Shown here: positions 31,059 through 51,717 of the stretch, one piece after another
Numbering within the stretch: the stretch's first letter is position 1
Layout: the number at the start of each line of letters is the position of its first letter
DNA from: Leisingera sp. NJS204
Lineage (GTDB): Bacteria > Pseudomonadota > Alphaproteobacteria > Rhodobacterales > Rhodobacteraceae
Reading direction: 5' to 3'
DNA length: 64,000 bases
NCBI RefSeq assembly: GCF_004123675.1
Contig: NZ_CP035421.1
Coordinates: forward strand, 1 to 64,000
Position numbers and translations under genes: made by a program
Notes under the pieces: generated by a model
Seen by the model: the letters and a program-made list of their open reading frames with translations, nothing else
Told to the model about the DNA's origin: nothing
The model's database searches: none

Positions 31059-31778
31059 TCAGCATGGAAGGATCAAGCCCTGCTGCACCGCCCGGACCAC
31101 TGCAAAGGTCCGGGTGTTCACGCCCAGGGCAGCCATCGCATTTCTGATGTGAAAGTCGACTGTGTGGCGGCTGATGTTGAGGATGATCTCGATTTCCGCT
31201 GAAGATTTCCCCAAGGCTGCAAGCTGCAGGCATTCCAGTGCCCGCGGAGAAATGCCGCCGGCTGACTGGGTTTCGCCTTCAGAGGGAACGGTGTCGCTTA
31301 CCGCCTGGCCGATCAACTGCCCGTAATAGGTCGCACGGGACAAGTCCTTGTCTGAATATGCTTTTTTCCGCGAGCTGGAGAAGGACACGATCTGAATGCT
31401 GCCATCGAACTGCCGCGAGGACAGCAGCACCCCGGAATGAATGCCGAAATCGCCGGCCGCCTTGTAAACCTGATCATGTTTTTTCTGAAACGAGGCGCAA
31501 TTCCGCACGGTTTGCCAGCAAATGGCCCGGCTGGTGCGGGGGGCGAACTGAATGACCGGGTCAGAGCCGATCAGGCCGGTGCTGCGGTAATGCGCCGTCC
31601 ACTCCTTGGGGAAGTTTGTTTTCATGCTCTGCTGCGCTGCAGTGATGCCGCGGGTGGTTTCCGCGGTTATGTGGCAGGCGGCGAAATACTCAAAATCCGT
31701 GTTTTCCTGAAGTTCGCTGAACAGGCTGTCCACAATGGAGCCGCGCGCGTTGCATCCGCTAGTAACAGCATTCTGCAT
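31059..31778 (-). CDS. LuxR-family acyl-homoserine-lactone-responsive regulator
   Basis: A 239-residue regulator with an N-terminal autoinducer-binding domain and a C-terminal LuxR helix-turn-helix (about 175-235, ISPRALECLQLAALGKSSAE and LNISRHTVDFHIRNAMAALG). The residues that contact AHL in the family are present in order: Trp60, Tyr64, Asp73, Pro74 and Trp88. I set the start at ATG 31778 with AGGA 7 bases upstream; the TTG at 31784 is less likely. An 18-bp palindrome lies about 20-35 bases before the start and may mediate autoregulation. It is divergent from the hydrolase and luxI genes. Confidence 0.92.
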   Translation of the reverse strand: MQNAVTSGCNARGSIVDSLFSELQENTDFEYFAACHITAETTRGITAAQQSMKTNFPKEWTAHYRSTGLIGSDPVIQFAPRTSRAICWQTVRNCASFQKKHDQVYKAAGDFGIHSGVLLSSRQFDGSIQIVSFSSSRKKAYSDKDLSRATYYGQLIGQAVSDTVPSEGETQSAGGISPRALECLQLAALGKSSAEIEIILNISRHTVDFHIRNAMAALGVNTRTFAVVRAVQQGLILPC

Positions 31779-31796
31779 CACCAAATCCTAAAAAAT

Positions 31797-31814
31797 TAAC
31801 CTTACGTAAGGTTA
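31797..31814. promoter_or_regulatory. 18-bp perfect palindrome, lux-box candidate
   Basis: TAACCTTACGTAAGGTTA is a perfect inverted repeat in the 210-base divergent gap between luxR and the alpha/beta hydrolase. Size and symmetry match binding sites of LuxR-type regulators. It is so close to the luxR start that binding would probably affect luxR itself. No second perfect copy was seen in front of luxI or in the 41126-41284 divergent region. Confidence 0.6.
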
Positions 31815-31988
31815 TTTCAGGTCCGCCCTGGGCGCAACTTATAATTGTGGCTCTGCCCTGCGCGGATCTGCTATGCGGGATATCGGAAAGAACACGCCGA
31901 TACAGGCTCTTCTCCTCACTCAGGGTTGCATTTTCAGACCATAACCACACTTGTGGGTGAAGCATCCCTAGCAGAGACCCGACTTCAG

Positions 31989-32927
31989 ATGGCCAAGAAA
32001 TTTATCACTTTCGCAATCGCCCTTTTACTGGCCGGTCTGGCCGTCACAGCCGCCTTGCGGGTCTGGCCCGCGCAGAGCGCCCGGGCGATGATCTCTGCCT
32101 TTGTCTATGTCTCCGGATTGGCAGCGAAACAGGCTGAAACCAAGGTTGGCACTGTGCATTATCTTGAGGGCGGCGAGGGAGAAACGGTTGTCCTGCTGCA
32201 CGGTATATTTGCGCGCAAGGAACATTGGATCGACATGTCCCGGCAGCTGAGCGGCGGCTACCGCGTTATCGCGCTGGATCTGCCTGGGTTCGGGGACAAT
32301 TCCGTGCTGCCGGAAGGGGAGTATGATTATGCCGGGCAGGCGCAGAACCTCATGGCGGTGCTTGATACGCTTGGGGTGGAGCGCTTTCATCTGGCGGCAA
32401 ATTCGATGGGCGGGCAGATTGCCGGCCTGGTGGCCACGCAGTTTCCTGACCGGGTCGCCAGTGTTGCCTTTATCGGCAGCCCCGTCGGCGTGAATTCGCC
32501 GCAGGAAAGCAAGTTTGAGGCGGCAATGCGGACAGAGCAGAAAACCCTGGTGGTCGACAGCCGGGAGTCCTTTGAGAAGCGCAACGCCTTGTTGTTCCCG
32601 GAAAAACCATATGTGCCTGCAGTGATTGAAAACCTGTGGGCGGGTCAGGAAATTGCCAATGCGCAGGCAAACCGGCGGATTTGGAAAGAGGTCAACGGCT
32701 CGGATACGGTTCCCCTGCAGAGGCTTGCCACCCGTATCACCCAGCCGAGCCTGATTGTCTGGTGCCGGGAGGACCGGATTTTCGATCCCAGCGGCGCGGC
32801 GGTACTGGCCGAGGCCCTGCCGGATTCCGAACTGGTCTGGCTGGATCAATGCGGCCATGTGCCGATGCTGGACCAGCCGGCCGGGTCGGGCCGGGCGCTG
32901 CGCGCCTTTCTGGATGCGCAGCACTAG
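31989..32927 (+). CDS. Membrane-anchored alpha/beta hydrolase
   Basis: A 312-residue alpha/beta-fold hydrolase with an N-terminal hydrophobic segment (FAIALLLAGLAVTAALRV) that would anchor it or act as a signal. The oxyanion motif is LLHGIFARKEHW, the nucleophile Ser lies in LAANSMGGQIAGL (nucleophile elbow with Ala at the first Gly position), the acid is in WCREDRIFD and the His is in QCGHVPML. It sits between luxR and luxI. It could act on an ester product of the cluster or on an AHL; the sequence does not decide this. Confidence 0.82.
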   Translation: MAKKFITFAIALLLAGLAVTAALRVWPAQSARAMISAFVYVSGLAAKQAETKVGTVHYLEGGEGETVVLLHGIFARKEHWIDMSRQLSGGYRVIALDLPGFGDNSVLPEGEYDYAGQAQNLMAVLDTLGVERFHLAANSMGGQIAGLVATQFPDRVASVAFIGSPVGVNSPQESKFEAAMRTEQKTLVVDSRESFEKRNALLFPEKPYVPAVIENLWAGQEIANAQANRRIWKEVNGSDTVPLQRLATRITQPSLIVWCREDRIFDPSGAAVLAEALPDSELVWLDQCGHVPMLDQPAGSGRALRAFLDAQH

Positions 32928-33072
32928 GGCCGGACGAATCCCGGCACTCCCGGCCGGGGCAGCGGGACCAGAGCCGGCCTGAGAGCACGCAACTATCAGG
33001 TTACAGTGTTTACCGCTGCCGGGATCATCCTGACACTGCCACTCAAATTCAGCGAAGCGGGGCTTGGGTGAC

Positions 33073-33645
33073 ATGCGGACTATCATCGTGAACAATCAGA
33101 ATATCGGGAAATACGCGCATTACTGGCGCGCGCATTTCAAGCTGCGGCACCAGATATTCGTTGAACGTCTGGGCTGGGACCTGAACAGCTACGACGGCAT
33201 GGAGTTCGATGAATTCGACACGCCGGCAACCGAATATGTCCTGTGCATCAACAACGCCGACCAGGTGGTCGGCGTCTCGCGGCTGCTGCCGACATCCTGC
33301 ACCTATATGATCGAAAAGAGTTTTTCGCAGGAATATGACGGGCCGCTGCCCAAAAGCGACCGCGTCTGGGAAGCAACACGGTTCGGTGTTTGCCGGTCGC
33401 TGAACGGCGCCGAGCGGTCTGAGGCAATCGACGCCATCACCAGCCGGATCTACAATTTCGGCCAGCAGCAGGGCCTGTCAGAGTTTCTGCTGCTGATGCC
33501 GTTGTTCATCTATTCACGGATCCTGATCCCGCGCGGATACGATCTGAAGGTTCTGGGTAAGCCCTGGCGCTGCGGCAATATGACCATCGCCGTTGCCCGC
33601 GTCCGGGTTGAGCAGGCCGAAAGCACAATCCGCCTGACAGCCTGA
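33073..33645 (+). CDS. Acyl-homoserine-lactone synthase (LuxI family)
   Basis: A 190-residue autoinducer synthase that makes an AHL signal from S-adenosylmethionine and an acyl-ACP. All invariant residues of the family are present at near-canonical positions: Arg25, Phe29, Trp35, Asp46, Asp49, Arg70, Glu100 and Arg103, in LRHQIFVERLGWDL, EFDEFDTPATEYV, VGVSRLLPT and WEATRFGVC. The ATG at 33073 is preferred over the TTG at 33064. Together with the luxR gene 1.3 kb away it forms a quorum-sensing pair next to the biosynthetic cluster. The acyl chain cannot be predicted. Confidence 0.95.
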   Translation: MRTIIVNNQNIGKYAHYWRAHFKLRHQIFVERLGWDLNSYDGMEFDEFDTPATEYVLCINNADQVVGVSRLLPTSCTYMIEKSFSQEYDGPLPKSDRVWEATRFGVCRSLNGAERSEAIDAITSRIYNFGQQQGLSEFLLLMPLFIYSRILIPRGYDLKVLGKPWRCGNMTIAVARVRVEQAESTIRLTA

Positions 33646-33695
33646 CGGCCCGTCCGGTGTGCGGACAGCGTTTATCACAAAAAGGAAGTTCGATT

Positions 33696-34754
33696 ATGCC
33701 TGAGGATACCCTCGAGGAGTTTTCAATCGCATCCGGAGACCGCATTTGCGTCACCGGCGGCGGCGGCTATCTGGGCCGCCATGTGGCCGCGGCCCTGCTG
33801 GCCCGGGGATTGCGGGTGGTGATTACCCTGCGCGACATTCAAAAGGCCGGCCCGGTCCGCGCCTCGCTGCAGGACTACCTGGGCAAGGACAGCCTGCCGC
33901 TGGAATTCATCGAGGCCGATCTGACCTCTGACAACGGCTGGGATCTGGCGGCGCAATCAAGCCGGGCGATCATCCACACGGCCTCGCCCTTTCCTGACCG
34001 CCCGCCGAAGAACCCGCAGCATCTGGTGAAACTGGCGGCAGAAGGCACCGAACGGGTGCTGCGCGCCGCCGCCGCCCATGGCACCCGCCGCGTTGTGGTG
34101 ACGTCTTCCATCGCCGCGGTCACGATGAAACCGCTGGAGCCGGGCCGCCTGTCTTACGACGAAAGCGACTGGAGCGACCCGGAGGATCCCCGCACCGATG
34201 CTTATGCGTTGTCGAAACTGAACGCCGAGCGCCGGGCCTGGGAACTGGCGGAGGAACTGGGGCTGGAGATGACTGTCATCAACCCCGGCCTTGCCTTCGG
34301 GCCGCCCATCGGCAGCAGCGGCGCAACGTCCATCGGCGTCATCCAGCGGTTCCTGAAGGGCCGCGATCCGGCGCTTCCCAATGCGGGTTTCCCCTGTGTC
34401 GATGTCCGCGATGCGGCCGAAGCCCATGTGCAGGCACTGCTGCGCAACGGCGCCTGCGGGCAGCGGATCATTGCCGCCAGTGAAACCCGGACGATGGTTG
34501 AAATTGCCAGGGTGATTGCCAAGCAGTTCCCGAGCCGGGCCATCAAGACCGGTGCCGCCCCGGATTCGATGGTGCGGGCCGCGGCGAAATTCGACCCGGT
34601 TCTGCAGAATGTCCTGCCGCATCTGGGCGTGGCGCCGGAAGTATCCTGCGACCGCGCGCAGAGTCTGCTGGGTCTCAGCTTCCGCCCGATTGATGACAGC
34701 ATCGCGGAAACCAGCCGGGTGCTGATGCAGCAGGAACTGGCCGCCGCGGATTAA
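33696..34754 (+). CDS. NAD(P)-dependent reductase/epimerase (dihydroflavonol-4-reductase-like)
   Basis: A 352-residue extended short-chain dehydrogenase. It has ICVTGGGGYLGRHVAAALL as the Rossmann motif (about 16-34), VVVTSSIAAVTM, and the active-site pattern TDAYALSKLNAER (Tyr-xxx-Lys). The family reduces carbonyl groups on varied substrates, including natural-product intermediates. AAGGAAG lies 7 bases before the ATG. It follows luxI by 50 bases in the same direction and converges with the class IV aminotransferase gene (4-base overlap), so it may be co-transcribed with luxI. Confidence 0.85.
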   Translation: MPEDTLEEFSIASGDRICVTGGGGYLGRHVAAALLARGLRVVITLRDIQKAGPVRASLQDYLGKDSLPLEFIEADLTSDNGWDLAAQSSRAIIHTASPFPDRPPKNPQHLVKLAAEGTERVLRAAAAHGTRRVVVTSSIAAVTMKPLEPGRLSYDESDWSDPEDPRTDAYALSKLNAERRAWELAEELGLEMTVINPGLAFGPPIGSSGATSIGVIQRFLKGRDPALPNAGFPCVDVRDAAEAHVQALLRNGACGQRIIAASETRTMVEIARVIAKQFPSRAIKTGAAPDSMVRAAAKFDPVLQNVLPHLGVAPEVSCDRAQSLLGLSFRPIDDSIAETSRVLMQQELAAAD

Positions 34755-35626
34755 TCCGCGGCCCAGTCCGGCGGGGCCGGCATAATACCGGTTTCCTGGG
34801 CGATCCTGTCCCGCAGCAAGCGGGCCAGGGCGCTCCGGAACCGCAGCGAGGTCCCGCCCATATTGGTCACCGGCATGATCAGCCGCAGGCTGTTGCAGGC
34901 AAAAACCTCATCCGCGGACTGCAGCTCAGTAGCGGTGAGCGAGGCTTCTTCGGCGGTCAGCCCGGCGTCTGCCGCCAGACACAACAGAAGCCCCCGCGTC
35001 ACCCCCGGCAAGACCCCGTCGTGCACCGGCGGGGTGATCAGCCTGCGGTCTTTGATGGCAAAGATGTTTGCCATCGTGGTGCAGGCGGCAAACCCGCGGG
35101 TGTTCAGGAACAGCGCATCACCAAGCCCTTTCTGGCGGGCGGTGCCGGTGGCCAGGATCGCATCGAGATAAGATGCGGCGGTTTTCCACTGGCTGAGAGG
35201 CGAGGTCTCGTTTCTGGCGGCTTCGGCAATATCCAGCGCAACCGGCTGGAATTGCAGCGACGGCGGCAACGGCGACAGCGTGGCGGTCACCCGGCTGTAG
35301 TGCGACAGGTCGGTTGCCAGCCCGCGTGCCCCTGCACCGCGGCTGATGGACACCCGCAGGATCGCAGCTGCGTCCGTTTCGGCGCAGATGCCGTAAGCGG
35401 CTGAAATCAGGCGGCAGTCCGCACGATGGGCAAAGAAATCCGCCGTATGTTCCAGCCGCCGCTGGTGGGCCTGCCGCAGCACTGCCTTGCCGCCGAGGCA
35501 GAGCACCGTGTCAAACACCGCATCGCCAAGCGTGGCGCCGCGTTCGGATGCCGCATAGACCGGGCTGCCGGGCGGATGGAATTCGCCGTCCGACCACAGC
35601 AGCGGCAGCGCCTTGCCGCCAGTCAT
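34751..35626 (-). CDS. Class IV aminotransferase, ADC-lyase-like (PabC-like)
   Basis: A 291-residue PLP enzyme of the fold that includes branched-chain aminotransferases, D-amino acid aminotransferases and aminodeoxychorismate lyase. The PLP lysine is Lys148 in SQWKTAASYLDAI, and ERGATLGDAVFDTVL near the N-terminus and LPGVTRGLLLCLA are family blocks. With a PabA-PabB fusion in the same cluster, a lyase role that forms p-aminobenzoate from aminodeoxychorismate is the most natural reading. A transaminase role cannot be excluded. Its ATG overlaps the stop of the acyltransferase-like gene by four bases. Confidence 0.78.
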   Translation of the reverse strand: MTGGKALPLLWSDGEFHPPGSPVYAASERGATLGDAVFDTVLCLGGKAVLRQAHQRRLEHTADFFAHRADCRLISAAYGICAETDAAAILRVSISRGAGARGLATDLSHYSRVTATLSPLPPSLQFQPVALDIAEAARNETSPLSQWKTAASYLDAILATGTARQKGLGDALFLNTRGFAACTTMANIFAIKDRRLITPPVHDGVLPGVTRGLLLCLAADAGLTAEEASLTATELQSADEVFACNSLRLIMPVTNMGGTSLRFRSALARLLRDRIAQETGIMPAPPDWAAD

Positions 35627-37005
35627 TCCGCAGCCTGCGGTTGGCTGCCCGCAGCCCCAAGCCCGATGGAGCGCGCCAGCGCGTCCTTGAAGGCAGGGAT
35701 CATTTCATTTTCCATTTCGGCACAGGACACCGCGTCTTCGTCCCACAGGAAGACGGCGCGCAGGCTGTCCGGAGTTGTGGTGATCAGAAGCATGATCTTG
35801 CCCGGCGGAAACAGCTGCGGAAAGCTGAAGTACCTGCGGGTCTGCAATGCCGAGGCGTTCAGTATCTGCGGCGGTACAGGGCCGATGTTGGACAGGATAA
35901 ACGGCGATTTCACCACCAGCATCAGCACCAGTTTGGTCGCCAGCACCTTGGGCAGAAAGGCAATCACCTTGTGGTAAAAGGCGTAGCGGGTAAGGTCGTC
36001 CAGCACCTTGCCCGCGCGCAGGGTCTCAACCGTTTCAAAAATCCGCTCGCGCTGGGTCCGGGTTGACGGGCCGGAGGGAACCTCGATCGCGTAGGGCACG
36101 GCGCAGATGTCATAGTAGCCGTCCAGATCCTGGTCCGAAAACGGCCTGAGCGAGAAATTGTCGATCAGCTTGACCTTGCCCTTGGGCTTTTGCCCCCTGG
36201 CGGCATTGAAAGCGGTGATCGTTTCAACCCAGGCCGCCAGATAAAACGGGTGCCGGCTGATCTGTTCGGAGCGGGCGAACTGGCGCAGGTGCTGCCAGAC
36301 ATCGGGGCCAAGATCTTCGAAACGCACCCGGGTCCGTCCGCGCTGCAGCTTGCTGCTGGTGTTGCCCGCCAGCGCCACCGGGGCGGTCACCGTTTCGCGC
36401 AGCATGTCCAGCATCGTCGCCGCGAATGATCGCAGATGGCGCCAGGCGGACCATTTGGGCATGAACAGTTTGGCATTTGCCCTGTCCGGAACCCCGGCCG
36501 GGCTTTCAACGGGGACCTCGCCGCGCATCAGCGCCTCATAGGCGCTGACCAGCTGAACCGAGATCAGGTTGGCGGATTTTCCGCAGGTGTAGATATGGCT
36601 GGTGACGCTTTGCAGGATGGTCAGGTCGTCATATTCGGTGACAAAGATCCGCCATGGCGGGCCATTGGCGTGGTCCAGCGGCTCACCCCAGACATTTTGC
36701 GGCACCAGCTGGTCGGCGGCCTGTTCCGGGCAGCGTCCCCGCGTGCGCACATAGCGGATGTCGGGCTGCGCCTGCGGGTTGCGGGTCCAGCCCCACCCGG
36801 TCAGCCCGGCAAAAGAGCCGGCCGCCTGCAGGGCCGCATGGCGCCGGGCCACCGAGGCCGCGGCCTGGCGCAGGATATCCAGATCCGGTGCGTTTTCCAG
36901 TTCGAACCAGTCGCAGGAATTGCCGTTCAGCCCCTGACGGGCAAGCATCTTTTCGTAATAGATGTAGATGCGGTTCAGCGTCGTCATCGGGTGGCGTTCA
37001 GGCAT
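35623..37005 (-). CDS. Condensation/alcohol-acyltransferase-like enzyme with altered HHxxxDG motif
   Basis: A 460-residue protein with the two-lobed layout of CoA-dependent acyltransferases, wax-ester synthases and NRPS condensation domains. The position of the HHxxxDG motif reads SHIYTCG (136-142): the second, catalytic His is kept, while the first His and the Asp are changed. KVKLIDNFSLRP and PFILSNIGPVPPQILNA are typical C-lobe blocks of alcohol acyltransferase relatives. It could join an activated acyl group to an amine or alcohol. It overlaps the ligase gene by 8 bases and the PabC-like gene by 4. Confidence 0.7.
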   Translation of the reverse strand: MPERHPMTTLNRIYIYYEKMLARQGLNGNSCDWFELENAPDLDILRQAAASVARRHAALQAAGSFAGLTGWGWTRNPQAQPDIRYVRTRGRCPEQAADQLVPQNVWGEPLDHANGPPWRIFVTEYDDLTILQSVTSHIYTCGKSANLISVQLVSAYEALMRGEVPVESPAGVPDRANAKLFMPKWSAWRHLRSFAATMLDMLRETVTAPVALAGNTSSKLQRGRTRVRFEDLGPDVWQHLRQFARSEQISRHPFYLAAWVETITAFNAARGQKPKGKVKLIDNFSLRPFSDQDLDGYYDICAVPYAIEVPSGPSTRTQRERIFETVETLRAGKVLDDLTRYAFYHKVIAFLPKVLATKLVLMLVVKSPFILSNIGPVPPQILNASALQTRRYFSFPQLFPPGKIMLLITTTPDSLRAVFLWDEDAVSCAEMENEMIPAFKDALARSIGLGAAGSQPQAAE

Positions 37006-38704
37006 TGGCCAGTTCCTTGGCCGCTGCGGGCTTGCCTTCCGGTGTTTGCGGCTGTGCGGCGTCCGCTGCGGGCTGCTGCCGCAACTGTTCGCGGATTTCG
37101 CGTTTCAGCACTTTGCCAGTCAGCCCGCGCGGCGGTTTGGCGCCCTCCGGCAGGATGATCACCTCCGACAGGTGCTGCGCCCAGCTGCAGTTTGCTTTCA
37201 CTGCTGCTAGCAGATCTGCAGGGCTGCCCGCATGTCCCGGCGCCATCTGCAGCAGCAGCACTGCCTCGTCCGCACCGGAAGCCGGGCGGGCCGCGAGAGC
37301 GGCTTCTTGCACGAATGGCAATTTCAGCGCTTCTTCTTCAACCGGCAGGCCGTAGACCGGGCCCTGGGCTGTGTTCACCGTGTCGACATCGCGGTCGATC
37401 TGGTAAAACCGCCCGAAATTGTCCCGGAAGCCGACATCCCCGGTCCACCACCAGCCGTCGCGGACCACATCATGGGTGCGGTCGTGCTGGTTCCAGTAGC
37501 CTTTGAACAGTGTCGGCCCCTTGACCATCATCCGCCCGACCTTGTGGGCCGGCAGCCGGCGGCCTTCGGAATCGGCAATTTTCACCGCCGGGCTGGCCGG
37601 TGTCGGCCGCCCCACCATCCGGCCGAAATTCCGGGTCCGCCGTTCACTGATCTTCACCAGCGCCGCAAAGCCGATTTCGGAGGTCCCGAAGAACTCCATG
37701 AACAGGGAGCTGACCAGCGGTTTGCCGAACAGCCGCAAAAAGGCGCCCTTGGCCGTCAGCTGCCGGATGTAATGTTCGTGCATGGCGTCGCCGCTGGACA
37801 TCCACATGCGGACCGACGACAGGTTGTAACCGTCCAGGCCGGTCTGGCACATGTTCTGGTAGATGTCGGGAAAGGCAAAGAACAGGCGCGGCTGCCAGTC
37901 GCTGATGGACTGCAGGATGTGCCTGGCGCTTAGGTCCGTCACCACATGGGTCCGCACCCCGGCCGCAAGCGAGGTGATGCAGCCGGCCTGGCTGATGTGA
38001 TGGTTCATCCAGCCTGCGAACATCACCGGGTTGCGGCGGGTAATGAACTGGATCCGCATCTGGCCCTGGGCCGCCAGAATAAAACTGTCCGACCCGTGCA
38101 GAACCCCCTTGGGGAAACCGGTGGTGCCGGATGTGTGGCAGATCATGACATGCTGATCGCGGTCCATATGCGGCGGGGTGTATTCCACCGCTGCCCGGGC
38201 AAAGGCGTCCGGTACCGGGATCACCTCGACACCCGGGGCGGCCAGGCTGCCATTGGTCAAAAAGACCCGCTCAATCCCGTCCAGCGGCAGGCCGCTGTCC
38301 AGCAGGCTCTGCAGTCCGGCGCAATCGGTTACAACTGTCCTGGCACCGCTGTGGCGGATGAAGTTCAGGAAATTCTGCACTGGCATCCGGCCATTGACCG
38401 GAACCGAGATGGCGCCCCGGCGCATCGCCGCATAGCTCCACAGAAAATAGTCCAGCGAGTTGCCTTTCCAGATCGCCACCCGGTCGAACCGGCGGACGCC
38501 TTGGCTGTGCAGCATGTGGCACAGCCGGTTGACGGTACGCCGCAGCCCGCCCCCGGTCAGCCCGTCATCCGGGATGCCGTACTGCGGCAGCTGCTCATCG
38601 GTGGTGAAAAAGATCTCATGCTCGCGCCCGGCGATTGCGGTGTCCATCAGGGTTGCGATATTGACAGTGCGGTCGAGAATGAATTGCAGACGTTTCGGAA
38701 ACAC
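36998..38704 (-). CDS. Acyl-CoA-ligase-like adenylate-forming enzyme
   Basis: A 568-residue AMP-binding enzyme that starts at a GTG with AAAGGAAAGGG 7 bases upstream. Core motifs are CHTSGTTGFPKGVLH (P-loop), MEFFGTSEIGFAALV (A5-type), DGWWWTGDVGFRDNFGRFY (A7/A8) and the catalytic Lys in PRGLTGKVLKREI. It would activate a carboxylic acid as an acyl-AMP and pass it to CoA or another thiol. It lies in one operon with the acyltransferase-like gene that could use its product. Confidence 0.88.
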   Translation of the reverse strand: MFPKRLQFILDRTVNIATLMDTAIAGREHEIFFTTDEQLPQYGIPDDGLTGGGLRRTVNRLCHMLHSQGVRRFDRVAIWKGNSLDYFLWSYAAMRRGAISVPVNGRMPVQNFLNFIRHSGARTVVTDCAGLQSLLDSGLPLDGIERVFLTNGSLAAPGVEVIPVPDAFARAAVEYTPPHMDRDQHVMICHTSGTTGFPKGVLHGSDSFILAAQGQMRIQFITRRNPVMFAGWMNHHISQAGCITSLAAGVRTHVVTDLSARHILQSISDWQPRLFFAFPDIYQNMCQTGLDGYNLSSVRMWMSSGDAMHEHYIRQLTAKGAFLRLFGKPLVSSLFMEFFGTSEIGFAALVKISERRTRNFGRMVGRPTPASPAVKIADSEGRRLPAHKVGRMMVKGPTLFKGYWNQHDRTHDVVRDGWWWTGDVGFRDNFGRFYQIDRDVDTVNTAQGPVYGLPVEEEALKLPFVQEAALAARPASGADEAVLLLQMAPGHAGSPADLLAAVKANCSWAQHLSEVIILPEGAKPPRGLTGKVLKREIREQLRQQPAADAAQPQTPEGKPAAAKELANA

Positions 38705-38720
38705 GGTTAAGCCCTTTCCT

Positions 38721-39956: not shown

Positions 39957-39958
39957 GG

Positions 39959-41125
39959 TCAGGCAGCCTCGGCGCCGGTGTAGTCCCGGCAGAACAGGCT
40001 CAGCTGCCCGGGCGAGGCCAGAAGGGTGTCCAGCCGGGTCAGTTTCAGATTGCTCTCAAACGGATCACCCGACGGCGGCGCATGCAGAAGATCGGTCATC
40101 TGCCACGAGAAGGCCTGCCCGGCCCAGGCCCGCTTCAGCGCCTTTTGCGCATACTCTGCCAAGGCCTCCTGCCGGCCCTCGAACAGCAGCCTGCGGAAGC
40201 TTTCGCTCAGCTCGCGGATGTCGGCGATGGCCAGGTTCAGGCCCTTGGCCGCCGAGGGCGGCACAGTATGGCCCGCATCGCCGGCCAGAACCACATTTCC
40301 AAGCTGCATCCGGTCCGCCACATAGCCCTGCATCCGGACCATCAGCCGTTCTGTCACCTTGCCGGGGCTGAAGGTCACATCCGGCCCCAGGCGGCGCTGC
40401 ATCTCGCTCCAGAAGCGGTCATCGGACCAATCTTCGGCCTGGTCGTCCGCGCCGCATTGCAGGTAGGTGCGGCTGACCGTGTCCGAACGCATCGACCACA
40501 GCGCAAACCCGCGCGGGTGATAGGCATAGGTCAGCTCGGGCGAGACCGGAGGGGTTTCGCTCAGCACGCCGACCCAGGAAAACGGCAGCCGCTTGCTGCT
40601 GCCGCCCCCGGCGCCGTTCACCAGCCGGCGCGCCGGGCCATGCGCACCGTCGCAGCCGGCGACAAAGCGGCATTCCAGCCGGTGTTCAGCGCCGTCCTTG
40701 CGATAGGTGATGACATGCGGCTCCGCTTCCGGATCCGACAGCCGGATATCTTCGGCGCCGTAAACCGGGCTGCGGCCGCTTGCGGCCAGCGCATTGGTCA
40801 GATCGCAGGTCAGCGCCGACTGGCCGTAAACCATGCAGGAATGCCCCCCGCTCAAGGCTTCAAGGTCGATACGCCGCGTCTGACCGCGCCAGCGCAGGTT
40901 CATGCCCCGCTGCGGCAGGCCCAGCCGGTCCAGACGCCCGGCCAGCCCGGCCTGGCGCAGGAAGGCAACGCTGGCGTGATCCAGCTGCCCGGCCCGCACC
41001 CGGCGCTGCACATGCGCGCGGCTGCGGTGTTCCAGCACCTGATTGTCGATTCCCAGACGGTCCAGAAGAATCGAAAGAAGCAGCCCGGACGGGCCGCCGC
41101 CAATAATACCAACCGTCGTACGCAT
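39959..41125 (-). CDS. FAD-dependent aromatic hydroxylase (PobA-like)
   Basis: A 388-residue group A flavin monooxygenase similar in length and layout to 4-hydroxybenzoate 3-hydroxylase. Motifs are GIIGGGPSGLLLSILLDRLG (FAD ADP), VAGCDGAHGPARR (DG motif) and VLAGDAGHTVPPSAAKGLNLA (FAD ribityl). The family hydroxylates ring positions next to a hydroxyl or amino group. In this cluster the likely substrate is p-aminobenzoate or 4-hydroxybenzoate. It is the first gene of the minus operon and faces pabAB across a 159-base gap. Confidence 0.85.
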   Translation of the reverse strand: MRTTVGIIGGGPSGLLLSILLDRLGIDNQVLEHRSRAHVQRRVRAGQLDHASVAFLRQAGLAGRLDRLGLPQRGMNLRWRGQTRRIDLEALSGGHSCMVYGQSALTCDLTNALAASGRSPVYGAEDIRLSDPEAEPHVITYRKDGAEHRLECRFVAGCDGAHGPARRLVNGAGGGSSKRLPFSWVGVLSETPPVSPELTYAYHPRGFALWSMRSDTVSRTYLQCGADDQAEDWSDDRFWSEMQRRLGPDVTFSPGKVTERLMVRMQGYVADRMQLGNVVLAGDAGHTVPPSAAKGLNLAIADIRELSESFRRLLFEGRQEALAEYAQKALKRAWAGQAFSWQMTDLLHAPPSGDPFESNLKLTRLDTLLASPGQLSLFCRDYTGAEAA

Positions 41126-41284: not shown

Positions 41285-43432
41285 ATGGCAGTAAAGGGAT
41301 ACAGAGCCTTGAAACTTCTCCTCGTCGACAATTTTGACAGCTTTACCAATAATATAGCCGACTTCTTGCGCGGTCAGCGTGACGGTCTTTGCATCGATGT
41401 CATCCGCAATGACTGCTACGGCTTTCTGCAGAGTCCGGAATTTCTGAGCTATGATGGAATCATCATCTCGCCGGGGCCGGGCAACACCGGCGTCGCCAAG
41501 GATCTTGGCATTTCCCTGGAAATTCTGCGCCGCGACAGCCGCCCTGTGCTGGGGGTCTGCCTGGGCCATCAGGCGATGATCGTCGAGGGCGGCGGCGTCG
41601 TTGAACTGGCGCCGCAGCCAATGCACGGGCGGGTCAGTCAGATCACCTGCAGCGGCGAGGGGCTGTTTGCCGGCCTGCCCAAGACACAGAAAGTGATGCG
41701 TTATCATTCCTGGACCGTGAACCCGGAGCTGCCGCAGGGCTTTGTCTGCGATGCCTGGACCGAGGATGGCATTGTGATGGGCATCCGCAGCACCGAATCC
41801 CCGCGCTGGGGCGTGCAGTTCCATCCGGAATCGATTGCCACCGAATACGGCCGGGCGATTCTCGGCAACTTTCTGAATCTGGTCGAGACGCATCAGGGCC
41901 GGACCGCAGCCAAGGCCCGCAGCAATGCCGCAGGCGCGGCGCCCGCCCGCAGCCTGTACTGGCACAAGCTGGGCGCCGCCATCGACCCGGCGGCGCTGGT
42001 CGAAGCGCAGGGGCTGGTCAACGGCCGCCGCCCCCAGCTGCTGGAAAGCAGCCTCGCGCAGGAGGGGCTGTCGCGCTATTCCATTGTTGAGGCGCCCGCG
42101 GACCCGGACCGCAGCATGACCTATTGCGTGCAAACGCAGACCGTTCGCGAATACGAGGGAACCGCGCTTGCCGCCGAGCGGCAGATGCCGGTGCTGGACT
42201 ATCTCAGCAGTTGCCTGGGGGTTGTATCCTGTCCCGGCGGGCATCCGCCGTTCCCGTTCCTCGGCGGCCTTATCGGCTGGCTGGGCTATGAGCTGAAATC
42301 GGAATTCCTGGGTGTTTCCTCGCCGCCCTCGAAAACCGAAGACGCCGCCTTTCGCCATGTGCCGCAGTTCTTTGTGATCGACCATCTTGAAGATGCGGCC
42401 TATGCGGCGGTCTGCTTGCCGCAGGACGCCGAGGAAGCCCAATTCGACAACGCCCTGTCAGCGCTGCAGACAACGTTCGCCAAGGCGGCCAGGATGCAGG
42501 TCGCCCTGGCGCCCGCCAAACCCCGCCCGCCGCTTGAATTCACCATGCGGCACGCCCCCCAGGCCTATCTGGACCGGATTATCAAATGCCAGGAGCAGAT
42601 CCGCGCCGGCGAAAGCTATGAGCTGTGCCTGACCAACCAGATCACTGCCGAGCTGGAAGAGCTGGATGCCTGGGAGTTTTACAAGGTTCTCCGCCAGCGC
42701 AACCCGGCGACCTACAGCGGCTTTCTGAATATCGGCGGCACCGAGGTTGTGTCTTCCTCGCCGGAACGTTTCCTGCGCGCGGATCAGTCCGGCCTGCTGG
42801 AAAGCAAACCGATCAAGGGCACCGTCAAACGGGGGGCCACGCCGCAAGAGGATGCAGAGCTGGCCCGCCGTCTGCAGAGCACCGAGAAAGAACGCGCCGA
42901 AAACCTGATGATCGTCGATCTGGTGCGGCATGATTTTGCCGCAACTGCGATCCCCGGTTCCGTCGATGTGCCCAAGCTGTGCGCGATTGAGACCTATAAG
43001 ACCGTGCATCAGATGGTCTCGACCATCCGCGGGCGGCTGAAACCGGGCCTGACCAGCGTTGATGCCATCCGCACCTGTTTCCCCGGCGGCTCTATGACGG
43101 GTGCGCCCAAAATCCGCTCGGTGGAAATTCTCGATCAGCTCGAGGAAGGCCCGCGCGGGGTCTATTCCGGGGCGATCGGCTGGATCGGCTACAACGGGCA
43201 ATCGGATCTTTCGATTGTCATCCGCACGGTGGTGAAGCAGGGCGCGTCCGTCTCCATCGGCTGCGGCGGTGCCATCACCTATCTGTCGGACCCCAAGGCC
43301 GAACTGGATGAGATCATGCTGAAAAGCCAGGCCCTGGTGCGGGCACTGGCGGAACATCTTACCGGCCATTCAGAACACTACCGGATTTCCAACGGCCTGC
43401 AGGCGGCGCCGGCAGGCACCTTTGCAAAGTGA
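41285..43432 (+). CDS. Aminodeoxychorismate synthase, PabA-PabB fusion
   Basis: A 715-residue fusion of a class I glutamine amidotransferase (about 10-205) and a chorismate-using PabB/TrpE domain (about 220-695). The amidotransferase has the nucleophile Cys92 in LGVCLGHQAM and the His-Glu pair in WGVQFHPES. In the synthase domain, residues 509-513 read PIKGT, with Lys511; this Lys marks aminodeoxychorismate synthase, whereas anthranilate synthases have Ala (PIAGT). CFPGGSMTGAPKIRSVEIL and GAIGWIGYNGQSDLSI complete the active site. It should make ADC for p-aminobenzoate. A TTG at 41309 with AAAGGGA upstream is an alternative start. Confidence 0.9.
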   Translation: MAVKGYRALKLLLVDNFDSFTNNIADFLRGQRDGLCIDVIRNDCYGFLQSPEFLSYDGIIISPGPGNTGVAKDLGISLEILRRDSRPVLGVCLGHQAMIVEGGGVVELAPQPMHGRVSQITCSGEGLFAGLPKTQKVMRYHSWTVNPELPQGFVCDAWTEDGIVMGIRSTESPRWGVQFHPESIATEYGRAILGNFLNLVETHQGRTAAKARSNAAGAAPARSLYWHKLGAAIDPAALVEAQGLVNGRRPQLLESSLAQEGLSRYSIVEAPADPDRSMTYCVQTQTVREYEGTALAAERQMPVLDYLSSCLGVVSCPGGHPPFPFLGGLIGWLGYELKSEFLGVSSPPSKTEDAAFRHVPQFFVIDHLEDAAYAAVCLPQDAEEAQFDNALSALQTTFAKAARMQVALAPAKPRPPLEFTMRHAPQAYLDRIIKCQEQIRAGESYELCLTNQITAELEELDAWEFYKVLRQRNPATYSGFLNIGGTEVVSSSPERFLRADQSGLLESKPIKGTVKRGATPQEDAELARRLQSTEKERAENLMIVDLVRHDFAATAIPGSVDVPKLCAIETYKTVHQMVSTIRGRLKPGLTSVDAIRTCFPGGSMTGAPKIRSVEILDQLEEGPRGVYSGAIGWIGYNGQSDLSIVIRTVVKQGASVSIGCGGAITYLSDPKAELDEIMLKSQALVRALAEHLTGHSEHYRISNGLQAAPAGTFAK

Positions 43433-43458
43433 AGCAGGACTTCGAAAAGGATACCCTC

Positions 43459-44259
43459 ATGCCCGATTCTATTTCACGGCTTCCCCGCCGCGGTTTTCTG
43501 GCCCTTGGCGGCGGCAGTCTGGCCACCGCCATGCTGGCGCCCGGCCTGGTGCTGGCGGCCCCGGATGCGCTGGAGGTTGCCACCGCGGTCAATAACATCG
43601 AGCTGACCGGATCAATGGCGGCAATGGCCAAGGTCGAGCTGCGCCGCACCGGAGCGCCGGTGCGCACCCGCGATCTGGAAGTCTCCACGGCCCGGCAGGG
43701 CGGCAAGGATCTTAGCGACCGCCGCTATGTCTTTCTGGCCCCTGCGGATGTGCGCGACACCAAACTGCTGGTGCACGAGCAAGGCCGAAAGGACAATGAT
43801 CTTTGGCTGATGCTGCCCAGCCTTGGCAAAGTGCGCCGCATTTCCGCCTCTAAGCAGGCCAATGCCTTTGCCGGAACGGATTTCAGCTATGCCAACCTGA
43901 TGGCGATGCGGCTGGAAAATTTCACCCATGCGATCACCGCCGGCAGTGGCAGCAGCATCACATTGGAAAGCACCGTGCGCAGCGCCGGCTACGGGCGCAG
44001 CATCGGCTATGCGCGCGCGGTGACCCAGGCCAGGGCCGGGTCGATGGTGCCGTTCCAGATCGATTACTTCGATCAGAAGGGGCGCCATCTGAAGACACAG
44101 AAAATGTCCAAGGCGGCCCAGGCGCCGGATGGCAAACACATCCTGCGCTCGCGCCACATGATTGTGCACGGCAAAGGCCGGGAAACCCTGATCAGCCTGA
44201 GCAAAATCGATTTCAGCCCAAACTTCGGCGGCGGTCATTTCAGATCCCAAAGCCTTTGA
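43459..44259 (+). CDS. LolA-like outer-membrane lipoprotein-sorting family protein
   Basis: A 266-residue exported protein. The N-terminus carries a twin-arginine signal (SRLPRRGFLALGGGS, Arg10-Arg11) and cleavage near LVLAAPDA. The mature part has the LolA-like half-barrel pattern of proteins annotated as outer-membrane lipoprotein-sorting, for example DLWLMLPSLGKVRRISASKQ, and FSYANLMAM. Members of this family are typically encoded beside RND/MMPL exporters, as here. An in-frame GTG at 43429 overlaps the pabAB stop, but the ATG at 43459 has the better ribosome site. Confidence 0.8.
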   Translation: MPDSISRLPRRGFLALGGGSLATAMLAPGLVLAAPDALEVATAVNNIELTGSMAAMAKVELRRTGAPVRTRDLEVSTARQGGKDLSDRRYVFLAPADVRDTKLLVHEQGRKDNDLWLMLPSLGKVRRISASKQANAFAGTDFSYANLMAMRLENFTHAITAGSGSSITLESTVRSAGYGRSIGYARAVTQARAGSMVPFQIDYFDQKGRHLKTQKMSKAAQAPDGKHILRSRHMIVHGKGRETLISLSKIDFSPNFGGGHFRSQSL

Positions 44260-44283
44260 CGCCCCATCAGGAGAACTAAGCCT

Positions 44284-48471: not shown

Positions 48472-48476
48472 GATCC

Positions 48477-50867
48477 ATGACACATTCAAAACCCCTTCTC
48501 GCCAGGTTCATGCGGCGTTTCGCATCCTTTGTTCTGGCACAGCGCATATTGGCGGTCGTCTTTATGCTGGCGGTATCCGCCACCCTCATGAGCGGCCTTG
48601 CCCGCGTCGGCTTTGACACCTCTCCGGAAAGCTTTTTCCTGGAGGGGGCCGAAGTCATCGAAGACTGGTACGCCTTCAAGGAGAAATACCAGTCGGATGA
48701 GTTTTCCTTTATCGTGCTGACCCCGCCAGAGGCCAATGCGGCCTTTGTCAAAGAGCTGGAGGGATTTGCGACCCAGCTGGAAGACATCGACGGTGTCGAC
48801 CGGGTGACTGCGCTGCACAATGTCCGCTCCATCTCGGGCGAGGATGATGTCCTTGATGTCGGTGACTATCTGCATGCCGGCCTGACGCAGGCCGAAGTCA
48901 CCGAACGGCTGGAAAAGGCTGCCGCCCACCCCTATTACCGCGGGCTGTTCGTAAACGATCGCGGCAGCCAATTCGGTGTGCTGGTGGAAACCGTCAGCAC
49001 CTTCTCGAACGCTGACAAAGAGGGCTTCACCCAGGCGGTGCGCGCCATTCTTGCGCAGCCGGACTATGCGGAATGGAACGGCACAGCCATCGGCGCGCCG
49101 ATCCTTGATGCGGACGTGCAGCGGATTGTCGGCATGGAAAGCGGCATTTTCGGCAGCATCACCTTTACCCTGGTGATGGCGGGCTTCTTCATCGCCTTCC
49201 GCCACCGGCTGGCCTTGGCGCTGCCGCCGCTGGTTGCTTGTCTCTCCATCGGTTGCGCCCTTGGCGCAATGGGGCTTTGGGGCGCGGACGCAGGCCTGCT
49301 TACGCCGATTGTCCCTTCTTTCCTGATTTCGGTCGGACTGGGTACCGCGGCCTATCTGCTGTCGGATTTCACCACTGCCCGGCGCAAGGGCGAACCGGTG
49401 CAGGCGGCCATTCTGGACACTATGGAACAGGCCGGCGGCCCGGCGCTGCTGGCAAATATCACCACCGCCGGCGCGCTGTTTGCCTTCTCCGGCTCGCGCG
49501 TGCTGCCGGTGCGTGATGTGGGCCTGACTCTGGGCATCGGCCTGATGACAGCCTGCATCTTTACCCTGATCCTGTTCCCGCTGCTGGCCAATCTGTGGGG
49601 CCACCGTATCCGGCAGCAGCCGGGCCGCAGCACGCACAGCCCGGCGCTTGCCGCGATGGCAGATTTCGCCATCGGCGCGCCGCGGCTGATTGTGGCCGTG
49701 TTTGCAGTGCTGGTTGCCTTTGCCGTCGCCGGTGTCAGCAAGCTGGAAACGGATTACTACTATCTGGGCACCTTCAAGAAGGACTCGGATCTGTTTCAGG
49801 CGCATCAGGCCGCCAATGCGGCAATTCCGGTCTCCAACTCGATCGAGGTGCTGATCTCGCTTGGCAAGACCGACGCCTTGAAAGAGCCCGCCGCCCTGCG
49901 CGCTGTTGATGCCATCGCGCAACAGGCGCTGGCGGCGGTGGATCAGGACGTGGCAGTCAAATCCTACACTCTGGCTGATGTGGTCAAGGAACTGTCGGAA
50001 CAGACCCTGGGCAGCTACGCCATTCCTGACAACCGCAACGCCATTGCCCAGCTGATCCTGCTGTTCGAAAGCTCCGGCCATGACGAGATGGAGCGGGTCG
50101 CCAGTGCCGGCTTTGACGAAGCCCGGCTGACCTTCCTGGTGCCGTCGCGCGCCTACAGCGCCTATACGCCGCTGGTCGAAACCATCAAGGCCGAGGCCGC
50201 TGCCGTGATGGCCGAAGCGGGTTATCCGGATGCCGGGGTTGTGGTCACCGGCGTGGTTCCGATGTGGCTGGAGATCAGCACCTTCCTGACGGAAACGCAG
50301 ATTTCCTCCTTTCTGATGGCAACCGCGATTGTGGCGCTGGTGATGATGCTGATCGCCCGGTCGGTGGTGATCGGCCTGACAATGGCGGCAATCAACGTCT
50401 GCTGCGTGCTGCTGGTCCTGGGCTTCATGGGCCACATGGGGATTATCCTGGATCCCTTCACCATCCTGATCGGCGCGATTGCCTTGGGCATTCTGGATGA
50501 CGACACAATCCATTTCGCCCGCAACTTCCTGGACCGCCGCAAGCAGGGCGCGGATCTGGACACCGCCCTGCACCGCACCTTCCAAAGCGCGGGCAAGGCG
50601 ATGGGCATACAGACCCTGATCCTGGTGGTGGCCTTCATCGTCTACACAACCGGTTCCGTGCAAAGCCTTGCCACCTTCGGGTTTGTCACCACGGCAACGA
50701 TCTTTCTGGGGCTGCTGGTTGAATTCACCGTCACCCCGGCGCTGCTGATCCTGCTGTCGCGCGGCAGCGCGCACAGAACCGCCAAAGACCCGGTGCCGGA
50801 TGCCGATCCGGATGGCTACCGCCCGGTGCTGGAAATGCCTGATCCCATGCGCCCGTCGCAAAGCTGA
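48477..50867 (+). CDS. RND/MMPL-family exporter
   Basis: A 796-residue inner-membrane transporter with 12 predicted membrane segments in two halves, each with one large periplasmic loop between its first and second segments. Features include VPSFLISVGLGTAAYLLSDF and ILDDDTIHFARNFLDRR, the latter with the Asp residues of the proton relay in hydrophobe-exporting RND proteins. It starts 5 bases after the three-domain enzyme, with the LolA-like gene one position before that, a combination known for export of lipid-like products to the outer membrane. Confidence 0.92.
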   Translation: MTHSKPLLARFMRRFASFVLAQRILAVVFMLAVSATLMSGLARVGFDTSPESFFLEGAEVIEDWYAFKEKYQSDEFSFIVLTPPEANAAFVKELEGFATQLEDIDGVDRVTALHNVRSISGEDDVLDVGDYLHAGLTQAEVTERLEKAAAHPYYRGLFVNDRGSQFGVLVETVSTFSNADKEGFTQAVRAILAQPDYAEWNGTAIGAPILDADVQRIVGMESGIFGSITFTLVMAGFFIAFRHRLALALPPLVACLSIGCALGAMGLWGADAGLLTPIVPSFLISVGLGTAAYLLSDFTTARRKGEPVQAAILDTMEQAGGPALLANITTAGALFAFSGSRVLPVRDVGLTLGIGLMTACIFTLILFPLLANLWGHRIRQQPGRSTHSPALAAMADFAIGAPRLIVAVFAVLVAFAVAGVSKLETDYYYLGTFKKDSDLFQAHQAANAAIPVSNSIEVLISLGKTDALKEPAALRAVDAIAQQALAAVDQDVAVKSYTLADVVKELSEQTLGSYAIPDNRNAIAQLILLFESSGHDEMERVASAGFDEARLTFLVPSRAYSAYTPLVETIKAEAAAVMAEAGYPDAGVVVTGVVPMWLEISTFLTETQISSFLMATAIVALVMMLIARSVVIGLTMAAINVCCVLLVLGFMGHMGIILDPFTILIGAIALGILDDDTIHFARNFLDRRKQGADLDTALHRTFQSAGKAMGIQTLILVVAFIVYTTGSVQSLATFGFVTTATIFLGLLVEFTVTPALLILLSRGSAHRTAKDPVPDADPDGYRPVLEMPDPMRPSQS

Positions 50868-50877
50868 GGGATGCCGG

Positions 50878-51717
50878 ATGTCATATCTCAAACCGCATGA
50901 ACTTGCCGAGGCGATGGTCGAAGCCGGCGCCTCCAAGGTCGGCCTGTCCGCTAAGGACACGTTGATCCGGGCCTATATGGCGGGGGCGATCCTGGCCCTG
51001 GCCGCCGGGTTTGCAGTGACCGTCACCGTCAACACCGGCAACCCGCTGATCGGTGCGCTGCTGTTCCCGGTTGGTTTCTGCATGCTCAGCCTGCTGGGGT
51101 TCGATCTGCTGACCGGCGTCTTTACCCTGGTGCCCTTTGCAGTGCTGACCAACCGTCCGGGCTGCACCCCGCGCGCCATGCTGCGCACCTGGGCACTGGT
51201 CTTTGCCGGAAACTTCCTGGGTGCCATGACAACAGCCATCTTCATGGCGACGATCCTGACCATGGGTTTCACCCAGGAAGCCGGCGACGTCGGGCAGAAA
51301 CTGCGCACCATCGGTGAAGCCCGGACACTGGGCTATGCCGAGGCCGGGCTGGGCGGCATGACAACCCTGTTTATCCGGGCCGTGATGTGCAACTGGATGG
51401 TCTCGACCGGCGTGGTTGCCGCGATCATGTCGACCAGCGTCTCGGGCAAGGTGATCGCGATGTGGATGCCGATCCTGATATTCTTCTATCTCGGGTTCGA
51501 GCATTCGGTGGTGAACATGTTCCTGTTTCCCGCCGGGCTGCTGCTGGGGGCCGGTTTCACCTGGGCTGATTACCTGCTCTACAATGAGATCCCCACCGTG
51601 CTGGGAAATCTTGCCGGGGGCATCACCTTTGTCGGGGCAACGATCTATTCGACCTACTACCGCCACAACGGAACCAGCCCCGAAACGGCAGTGGATGCCC
51701 CGCTGGAGAATGTCTGA
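50878..51717 (+). CDS. Formate/nitrite transporter family channel
   Basis: A 279-residue FNT protein with six membrane segments. KDTLIRAYMAGAILALAAGF, ALLFPVGFCMLSLLGFDLLTG, VFAGNFLGA, IRAVMCNWMVSTGV and FEHSVVNMFLFPAGLL are the signature blocks of the family, with the conserved channel His in the last one. FNT members carry formate, nitrite, hydrosulfide or lactate. It begins 10 bases after the exporter and ends the plus operon, followed by a terminator. Why a small-anion channel belongs to this cluster is unclear. Confidence 0.9.
   Translation: MSYLKPHELAEAMVEAGASKVGLSAKDTLIRAYMAGAILALAAGFAVTVTVNTGNPLIGALLFPVGFCMLSLLGFDLLTGVFTLVPFAVLTNRPGCTPRAMLRTWALVFAGNFLGAMTTAIFMATILTMGFTQEAGDVGQKLRTIGEARTLGYAEAGLGGMTTLFIRAVMCNWMVSTGVVAAIMSTSVSGKVIAMWMPILIFFYLGFEHSVVNMFLFPAGLLLGAGFTWADYLLYNEIPTVLGNLAGGITFVGATIYSTYYRHNGTSPETAVDAPLENV

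What the first reader, a model, noticed from the sequence alone, without database searches (positions are those of the whole stretch)
31059..51717. Candidate undescribed quorum-sensing-linked cluster for a p-aminobenzoate-derived amide or ester
LuxR/LuxI, an ADC synthase, an ADC-lyase-like enzyme, an aromatic hydroxylase, two adenylating enzymes, a condensation-like acyltransferase, the fused amine-forming enzyme and a complete export set (RND exporter, LolA-like protein, outer-membrane barrel) lie together without primary-metabolism genes. No ketosynthase or NRPS carrier protein is seen, so it fits none of the common cluster classes. A product made of an amino/hydroxybenzoyl unit linked to an amine or alcohol, then exported to the outer membrane, is a consistent hypothesis.
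Basis: inference. Interest (0 to 1): 0.88.

Follow-up and report, generated by a model that had tools for sequence, protein, structure and literature searches.

The report
Probable diazo-metabolite gene cluster, Leisingera plasmids
A quorum-sensing-linked gene cluster on plasmids of some Leisingera bacteria looks built to turn p-aminobenzoate into an aminohydroxybenzoate whose amine is probably joined to a second nitrogen taken from nitrite; the product is not yet known.

Summary
A marker gene of the block occurs in 4 of 21 genus genomes; elsewhere in 295 family genomes there was one weak partial hit. The interpretation needs one large change. The 568-residue "adenylating enzyme" (36998-38704) is not an ordinary CoA ligase: with 23 sequences that include Tri17 (nitrite-dependent N-N former) and loci with nitrite-making CreE genes it forms a clade (100/100) against 30 other ANL enzymes, as its earliest, divergent branch. 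The hydroxylase has Ser at PHBH position 294, a change known to favour 4-aminobenzoate. The 1395-residue enzyme is a TamH-like transaminase-thioester reductase plus a benzoate-CoA-ligase-like domain. Best model: chorismate to 4-aminobenzoate to 4-amino-3-hydroxybenzoate, joined to nitrite nitrogen, an acid turned into an amine, product exported. Product, order of steps and nitrite source are inferred. New variant of a known kind.

The parts
31059..31784 (-). LuxR-type regulator
   Evidence: PF03472 + PF00196
31797..31814 (.). perfect 18-bp palindrome TAACCTTACGTAAGGTTA, candidate lux-type box
   Evidence: one mismatch in NJS201, degraded in L. thetidis
31989..32927 (+). alpha/beta hydrolase
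   Evidence: PF00561 (longer ORF); start read to match the 939-nt gene of NJS201
33064..33645 (+). LuxI-type acyl-homoserine-lactone synthase
   Evidence: PF00765 E 3e-27
33657..34754 (+). SDR reductase, cinnamoyl-CoA reductase / dihydroflavonol reductase type
   Evidence: best solved relative 5tqm cinnamoyl-CoA reductase; AvaA7 model only 32.8 bits against cut-off 400
34751..35626 (-). class-IV PLP enzyme, aminodeoxychorismate-lyase-like (PabC)
   Evidence: PF01063; ADC lyase models score best, 115 and 114 bits, below their cut-offs
35623..37005 (-). condensation-superfamily-like protein, possible acyltransferase; the HHxxxDG site (motif recalled) reads SHIYTCG
   Evidence: weak PF00668; no PDB sequence relative; sequence; AF model uninformative
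36998..38704 (-). predicted nitrite-dependent N-N-forming ANL ligase (diazotase-like)
   Evidence: closest solved chains 8ztz, 9xb8, Tri17; trees; 11 of 26 diagnostic residues
38721..39956 (-). predicted secreted outer-membrane barrel
   Evidence: signal-peptide-like start and C-terminal Phe seen; no family hit; AF model uninformative
39959..41125 (-). 4-hydroxybenzoate 3-monooxygenase family; Ser at PHBH position 294
   Evidence: NF006091 441 bits, over cut-off; alignment; Ser in 5 of 5 Leisingera copies
41285..43432 (+). fused aminodeoxychorismate synthase PabAB
   Evidence: PF00117 + PF00425; pabB model TIGR00553 over cut-off
43429..44259 (+). LolA-like periplasmic protein
   Evidence: PF17131
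44284..48471 (+). 1395-aa fusion: class-III transaminase (about 1-430), acyl-ACP-reductase-type thioester reductase (about 470-860), benzoate-CoA-ligase-like domain (about 905-1395)
48477..50867 (+). MMPL/HAE3-type RND exporter
   Evidence: PF03176, TIGR00921
50878..51717 (+). formate/nitrite-family channel, closest solved relative LCIA
   Evidence: PF01226; 9v2a LCIA 114 bits, FocA 3kly 56 bits, NirC 4fc4 37 bits

Best explanation
The block encodes a quorum-controlled pathway for an N-N-bonded (diazo-type) metabolite built on 4-aminobenzoate. PabAB and the PabC-like enzyme make 4-aminobenzoate from chorismate; the PobA-like enzyme hydroxylates it to 4-amino-3-hydroxybenzoate, an o-aminophenol. 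The ANL enzyme at 36998-38704 activates nitrite with ATP and joins it to the ring amine, giving an o-quinone diazide or a close N-N product; nitrite is taken up or balanced by the channel at 50878-51717 or comes from nitrate assimilation, because no CreE-type nitrite-making enzyme was found. The 1395-residue fusion activates a benzoate (or another acid), reduces the thioester and transaminates the aldehyde to an amine; the condensation-like protein may join building blocks. The RND exporter, LolA-like protein and predicted barrel move the product to or through the outer membrane. Shown: gene content, families, clade membership, conservation. Inferred: all substrates, order of steps, nitrite use by this enzyme, product, regulation and export.
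For: The four best solved relatives of the ANL enzyme score 157-168 bits (8ztz, 9xb8, 9bq0, 8tf7); the next, FadD13, 107. 9bq0/8tf7 are Tri17, a nitrite-dependent N-N-forming enzyme (passages of PMC11705231). In the careful 55-row tree rooted on 7 aryl ligases the two Leisingera copies plus 23 N-N-side sequences form a clade, 100/100, stem 1.04, with 30 other ANL enzymes outside. CreE homologues lie in the held neighbourhood of 20 of 61 N-N-side loci and 0 of 24 CoA-ligase-side loci (one of the 20 is the query's own locus, and several of the 24 are short contigs). The cluster supplies an arylamine route: PabAB is a third chorismate-binding enzyme of the genome, and the PobA-like enzyme has Ser for Thr294 in 5 of 5 Leisingera copies where the genome's chromosomal homologue has Thr; T294S raised 4-aminobenzoate conversion in a PHBH (passages of PMC10466732). 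The channel is inside the conserved block, and one 52-54% identical lies three genes from a ligase-diazotase fusion in Pseudovibrio sp. Ad37 and in G611.
Against: The enzyme is the earliest branch of the clade, at most about 34% identical to any other member found; it has 11 of 26 clade-diagnostic residues where other members have at least 18 and CoA ligases at most 3, and it lacks two residues invariant in the rest (Tyr for His312, though L. thetidis has His; Glu for Asp337). It is far below the AvaA6 diazotase model's cut-off, and a generic CoA-ligase model scores slightly higher (223 against 202 bits). Its substrate may not be the ring amine. The channel scores higher on FocA than on NirC models, LCIA is recalled as a bicarbonate/nitrite channel, and a channel occurs in only 1 of the 85 loci. 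No CreE was found in the genome, although 41 of 61 N-N-side loci also lack a CreE hit nearby. Changes at T294 also help other substrates. No product is known.
Confidence: 0.6

Rival explanations
1. One reading: both AMP-binding enzymes activate carboxylates and the product is an amide or ester of an amino/hydroxybenzoyl unit without any N-N bond.
For: The fusion's C-terminal domain is benzoate-CoA-ligase-like; a condensation-like protein is present (weak); the window ANL enzyme is the earliest branch of the N-N clade and lacks more than half of its diagnostic residues.
Against: The second ANL enzyme groups with N-N-forming ligases at 100/100; the formate/nitrite channel is unexplained.
Confidence: 0.22
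2. Cryptic diazotisation: the amine is diazotised and then removed as N2 by the SDR, as in the avenalumate and coumarate pathways, giving a 3-hydroxybenzoate-derived final product.
For: An extended SDR gene lies in the block; AvaA6/AvaA7 work this way (passages of PMC11705231 and PMC10777205).
Against: The SDR is nearest to cinnamoyl-CoA/dihydroflavonol reductases; it scores 32.8 bits on the AvaA7 model, cut-off 400, and 115 on HpnA.
Confidence: 0.12
3. 4-Amino-3-hydroxybenzoate made here is oxidatively dimerised to a phenoxazinone pigment; the ANL enzyme only helps coupling.
For: 4,3-AHBA dimerises with laccase to an aminophenoxazinone (passages of PMC10466732); deletion of the CreM homologue CrxM blocks two-unit crexazones, one of them a phenoxazinone (passages of PMC11429834).
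Against: No oxidase for the coupling was recognised among the block's genes; the amine-forming fusion is unexplained.
Confidence: 0.06

Closest known systems
Cremeomycin-type clusters and CreM/AvaA6/CmaA6/Tri17 ligases
   Same: ANL ligase of the same clade, in several loci beside genes for an aminohydroxybenzoate
   Different: Here the ring is predicted to come from 4-aminobenzoate plus a PobA-like hydroxylase rather than AHBA synthase; no CreE found; a formate/nitrite channel in the block; alphaproteobacterial plasmid, LuxI-linked
Tambjamine TamA/TamH and prodigiosin PigE
   Same: Transaminase fused to an acyl-ACP-reductase-type thioester reductase, in the TamH order (passages of PMC9594044)
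   Different: A benzoate-CoA-ligase-like domain is fused at the C-terminus and no carrier protein was found on the contig; TamH needed an ACP-bound substrate
Pseudovibrio sp. Ad37 (L040) and G611 (L141) cassette
   Same: N-N-clade ligase domain near a formate/nitrite channel, no CreE/CreD hit in the stretch held
   Different: Aryl ligase and diazotase-like domains are one protein; thioesterase, EamA exporter and carboxyl methyltransferase in place of PabAB, PobA-like, MMPL
8-Azaguanine cluster
   Same: An N-N cluster with a transporter proposed to handle nitrate/nitrite (passages of PMC7674941)
   Different: MFS NarK-like transporter with a nitric oxide synthase, purine chemistry

Membership tests
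ATP- and nitrite-dependent N-N-forming ANL ligases (CreM/Tri17 type) | Falls in the clade of characterised members rather than with CoA ligases | tested here: met
   100/100, 25 rows against 30 others; earliest branch
ATP- and nitrite-dependent N-N-forming ANL ligases (CreM/Tri17 type) | Residues conserved in the clade and absent from CoA ligases | tested here: inconclusive
   11 of 26, between CoA maximum 3 and clade minimum 18
AvaA6 diazotase (NCBIfam NF058622, an equivalog) | Score over the curated cut-off | tested here: not met
   202.5 bits against 975: not AvaA6 itself
ATP- and nitrite-dependent N-N-forming ANL ligases (CreM/Tri17 type) | Nitrite-dependent N-N bond formation in vitro | not testable with these tools
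   needs protein
ANS nitrite pathway (CreE + CreD) | CreE homologue in the genome | tested here: not met
   no hit with one Streptomyces CreE-type query (no positive-control genome in that call); by tblastn the same query hits 20 of 85 loci
TamH/PigE transaminase-thioester reductases | Both domains present | tested here: met
   PigE model 388 bits over the protein; AAR model 50 bits and PigE 134 bits on the middle domain; 4ppm and 6jzq among solved relatives
TamH/PigE transaminase-thioester reductases | Catalytic Cys of the reductase | tested here: inconclusive
   a Cys in ACIAE near residue 801, kept in 3 of 3 other copies; equating it with the AAR Cys is recalled, not aligned
TamH/PigE transaminase-thioester reductases | Carrier-protein partner in the cluster | tested here: not met
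   no PF00550 hit on C5
4-hydroxybenzoate 3-hydroxylases | Pocket residues Y201, S212, R214, Y222, P293, Y385 (PHBH numbers) | tested here: met
   all kept, T294 is Ser (read from the alignment)
Formate/nitrite transporters | PF01226 over cut-off | tested here: met
   204 bits, cut-off 34.6
Formate/nitrite transporters | Nitrite as the carried anion | not testable with these tools
   FocA model 108, NirC model 41 bits, both below cut-off
Aryl polyene clusters (export-set resemblance, recalled) | Ketosynthases and carrier protein | tested here: not met
   none among the block's genes

The most novel reading that the evidence does not exclude
A roseobacter plasmid pathway in which a dedicated formate/nitrite-family channel, in place of an enzymatic nitrite source, feeds a deep-branching nitrite ligase acting on 4-aminobenzoate-derived 4-amino-3-hydroxybenzoate, while a single carrier-free polypeptide turns a carboxylic acid into an amine; together they make a reactive o-quinone diazide (or a product of it) released at quorum through an RND/LolA/barrel route.
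Probability: 0.3. Interest if true: 0.8.

Novelty: new variant of a known kind. Interest (0 to 1): 0.62.

Why it matters
The nitrite-dependent diazo- or triazene-forming ligases named in the review passages that I saw are all from actinomycetes (PMC11705231). A marine alphaproteobacterial cluster with an early-branching member, a 4-aminobenzoate origin and a channel in the block would widen where and how such reactive metabolites are made, and could tie them to environmental nitrite and cell density. The three-domain fusion is a natural candidate for a one-protein acid-to-amine biocatalyst. Both ideas are testable with ordinary assays on purified enzymes.

Tried and rejected
Rejected: that the SDR is an AvaA7-type denitrification enzyme. 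Rejected: an aryl polyene cluster (no ketosynthase or carrier). Rejected: that the genes after the channel belong to the block: in NJS201 and M658 RidA and FAD-oxidoreductase genes follow, in L. thetidis betB and others. CreD-like hits in the genome (best 40% over part of the query) stand without a CreE hit and were not examined further. AF models of the condensation-like protein and of the barrel were useless (pLDDT 32 and 31), so no fold search was made. The lux-box consensus scan gave many hits inside genes; only the intergenic palindrome is kept. One search showed that a tree without wider outgroups cannot decide whether the window enzyme is inside or just outside the clade, since both splits exist there; hence with 7 aryl ligases as root.

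Rows dropped: one search used 64 of 93 rows (28 rows, most of them near-duplicates, and the long P0001 ligase row left out); of 28 alphaproteobacterial loci L113-L140, 7 listed with in-frame stops were left out and L113 is absent (not passed by the length filter), 20 kept; L119 and L138, minus-strand matches, were read on the wrong strand, showed as very long branches, and were dropped for together with 10 further rows (55 kept). The careful search did not finish; its tree is the quick one. In the trees the L040 protein was not cut to its diazotase half; it was from then on.

Full report
What is there. The window is the first 64 kb of a 124,119-bp contig (C5) of a 5.04-Mb genome. That it is Leisingera is inferred: the fusion gene is 99.4% identical to that of Leisingera sp. 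NJS201, and genomes labelled 'same genus' (G310, G313) carry contigs of the lengths of the M658 and L. thetidis plasmids. The fourteen predicted genes at 31059-51717 were checked by Pfam, NCBIfam and PDB-sequence searches. They are LuxR, an alpha/beta hydrolase, LuxI, an SDR, a PabC-like enzyme, a condensation-like protein, an ANL ligase, a predicted barrel, a PobA-like hydroxylase, PabAB, a LolA-like protein, the three-domain fusion, an MMPL exporter and a formate/nitrite-family channel. A perfect 18-bp palindrome lies between luxR and the hydrolase gene (31797-31814); NJS201 has it with one mismatch and L. thetidis only a degraded form, so its role is open.

Boundaries and distribution. The same gene order from luxR to the channel is annotated in Leisingera sp. 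NJS201 and L. thetidis. Upstream, L. thetidis has a sensor kinase and a response regulator where NJS201 and the window have glycosyltransferase genes; downstream it has betB where NJS201 and M658 have RidA and FAD-oxidoreductase genes (the window has the FAD oxidoreductase). M658 and G297 carry the parts that were in view. With the condensation-like protein as probe, 4 of 21 genus genomes match, 4 of 72,556 plasmid records, all Leisingera, and of 295 family genomes the window's own plus one weak partial hit (E 6e-4). The linkage is thus conserved but narrow, and looks like a block that moves between plasmid contexts.

The ANL enzyme is not an ordinary CoA ligase. Its four best solved relatives are 8ztz, 9xb8, 9bq0 and 8tf7 (157-168 bits); FadD13 follows at 107. 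A review names 9BQ0 and 8TF7 as Tri17, which makes an N-N bond from nitrite with ATP (PMC11705231, passages). That 8ztz is CmaA6 is my recollection and comes from no call; the identity of 9xb8 is unknown to me. Against this, the curated AvaA6 diazotase model (202 bits) is only the second best NCBIfam match after a generic CoA-ligase model (223 bits). CreE-type genes lie in 20 of 61 loci on the N-N side and in 0 of 24 on the CoA-ligase side; one of the 20 is the source of the query, one or two hits are partial, and several of the 24 are short contigs. In trees the window enzyme stands with the N-N side: 99 SH-aLRT with 91 rows, 100/100 with 64 rows, both rooted at the midpoint only. Because such a tree cannot exclude a position just outside, I added alphaproteobacterial CoA ligases and seven aryl ligases as root. 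The two Leisingera copies plus 23 N-N-side sequences then form a clade with 100/100 support and a stem of 1.04 changes per column; 30 other ANL enzymes are outside (quick 67-row version, two rows faulty). Within it Leisingera is the first branch. Of 26 positions that separate the N-N side from CoA ligases, the window enzyme has the N-N residue at 11; the best CoA ligase has 3 and the poorest other N-N member 18. So it is a robust but divergent relative, and its reaction is an inference.

Substrate supply. PabAB is a third chorismate-binding enzyme besides two on the chromosome, as expected for a dedicated 4-aminobenzoate supply. The hydroxylase keeps the PHBH residues that hold the carboxylate (S212, R214, Y222) and Y201 and Y385, but has Ser for Thr294 in 5 of 5 Leisingera copies, where the chromosomal homologue (44% identical) has Thr. 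In CvPHBH, T294S gave the highest share of 4-aminobenzoate converted among the single active-site mutants tested (98%; PMC10466732, passages). This supports 4-amino-3-hydroxybenzoate, an o-aminophenol like the substrate of CreM, as the intermediate. It does not prove it: Gly, Ala and Cys at 294 and changes elsewhere helped too, and T294A is known for another substrate.

Nitrite. No CreE-type enzyme was found in the genome with one query (that call had no positive control, but by tblastn the query hits 20 of 85 loci). The genome has an assimilatory nitrite reductase NirB, so intracellular nitrite is plausible. The block ends in a formate/nitrite-family channel whose closest solved relative is LCIA (114 bits, against 56 for FocA and 37 for NirC), although the curated FocA model scores above the NirC model, both below cut-off. 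These two cassettes are homologous, so this is one further independent case; in the 85 loci only L040 has a channel. A transporter proposed for nitrate/nitrite in another N-N cluster is the MFS protein 8-AzgB (PMC7674941, passages).

The fusion. The 1395-residue protein joins a PigE/TamH-like transaminase, an acyl-ACP-reductase-like thioester reductase and a benzoate-CoA-ligase-like domain. A transaminase Lys motif, a candidate reductase Cys and a ligase Lys motif are present (the meaning of these motifs is recalled). TamH works on ACP-bound acyl groups delivered by TamA and did not turn a CoA ester into amine (PMC9594044, passages). Here no carrier protein was found on the contig, so either the reductase takes CoA esters or adenylates handed over within the chain, or a carrier from elsewhere is used. 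Among plasmids the full-length architecture was seen only in Leisingera (4 records at 80% or more coverage); Rhodovulum and Haematobacter have relatives covering the first two domains in unrelated settings.

Product. Ring N-N chemistry, an amine from a carboxylate, a possible acyltransferase and an export trio are compatible with an exported diazo-benzamide or benzylamine, but the gene set does not fix the structure. A final product without N-N bond remains possible (rivals).

Literature. The listings of searches (several capped, for example 15 of 650) showed no paper on this block. The Leisingera sp. JC1 paper (passages) names siderophore, HSL, PKS/NRPS and indigoidine clusters among others and has no occurrence of 'aminobenz'. 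The library lacks most subscription papers, so absence there is weak evidence.

Noticed in passing
   Followed up: partly
L013:7510-13443: Klebsiella michiganensis plasmid (source Bactrocera dorsalis) with AHBA-synthase-like genes, an SDR, an MFS transporter and an N-N-clade ANL enzyme, without a CreE/CreD hit in the stretch held.
   Followed up: partly
L029:6403-18076: Pseudoalteromonas sp. S16_S37: aryl ligase, split PabB/TrpE-like and glutaminase-like pair, N-N-clade ligase, GST, two KASIII-like proteins and others in one run; sister of the Pseudovibrio type in the tree.
   Followed up: partly
L072:8393-11404: Alphaproteobacterial MAG with a LuxI homologue (30%), a GriI-like gene and an N-N-clade ligase side by side: a second possible quorum-sensing link.
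   Followed up: no
L148:17028-24187: In the NJS201 record pabAB and the three-domain gene are annotated in pieces (three and two), either assembly frameshifts or decay.
   Followed up: no
G000:C5:83043-83762 (outside the window): A second formate/nitrite-family channel on the same contig; these two are the only matches in the genome.
   Followed up: no
L005:1-3105: L. thetidis has quinohemoprotein amine dehydrogenase genes and a 'tryptophan 7-halogenase' about 4 kb upstream of the block.
   Followed up: no
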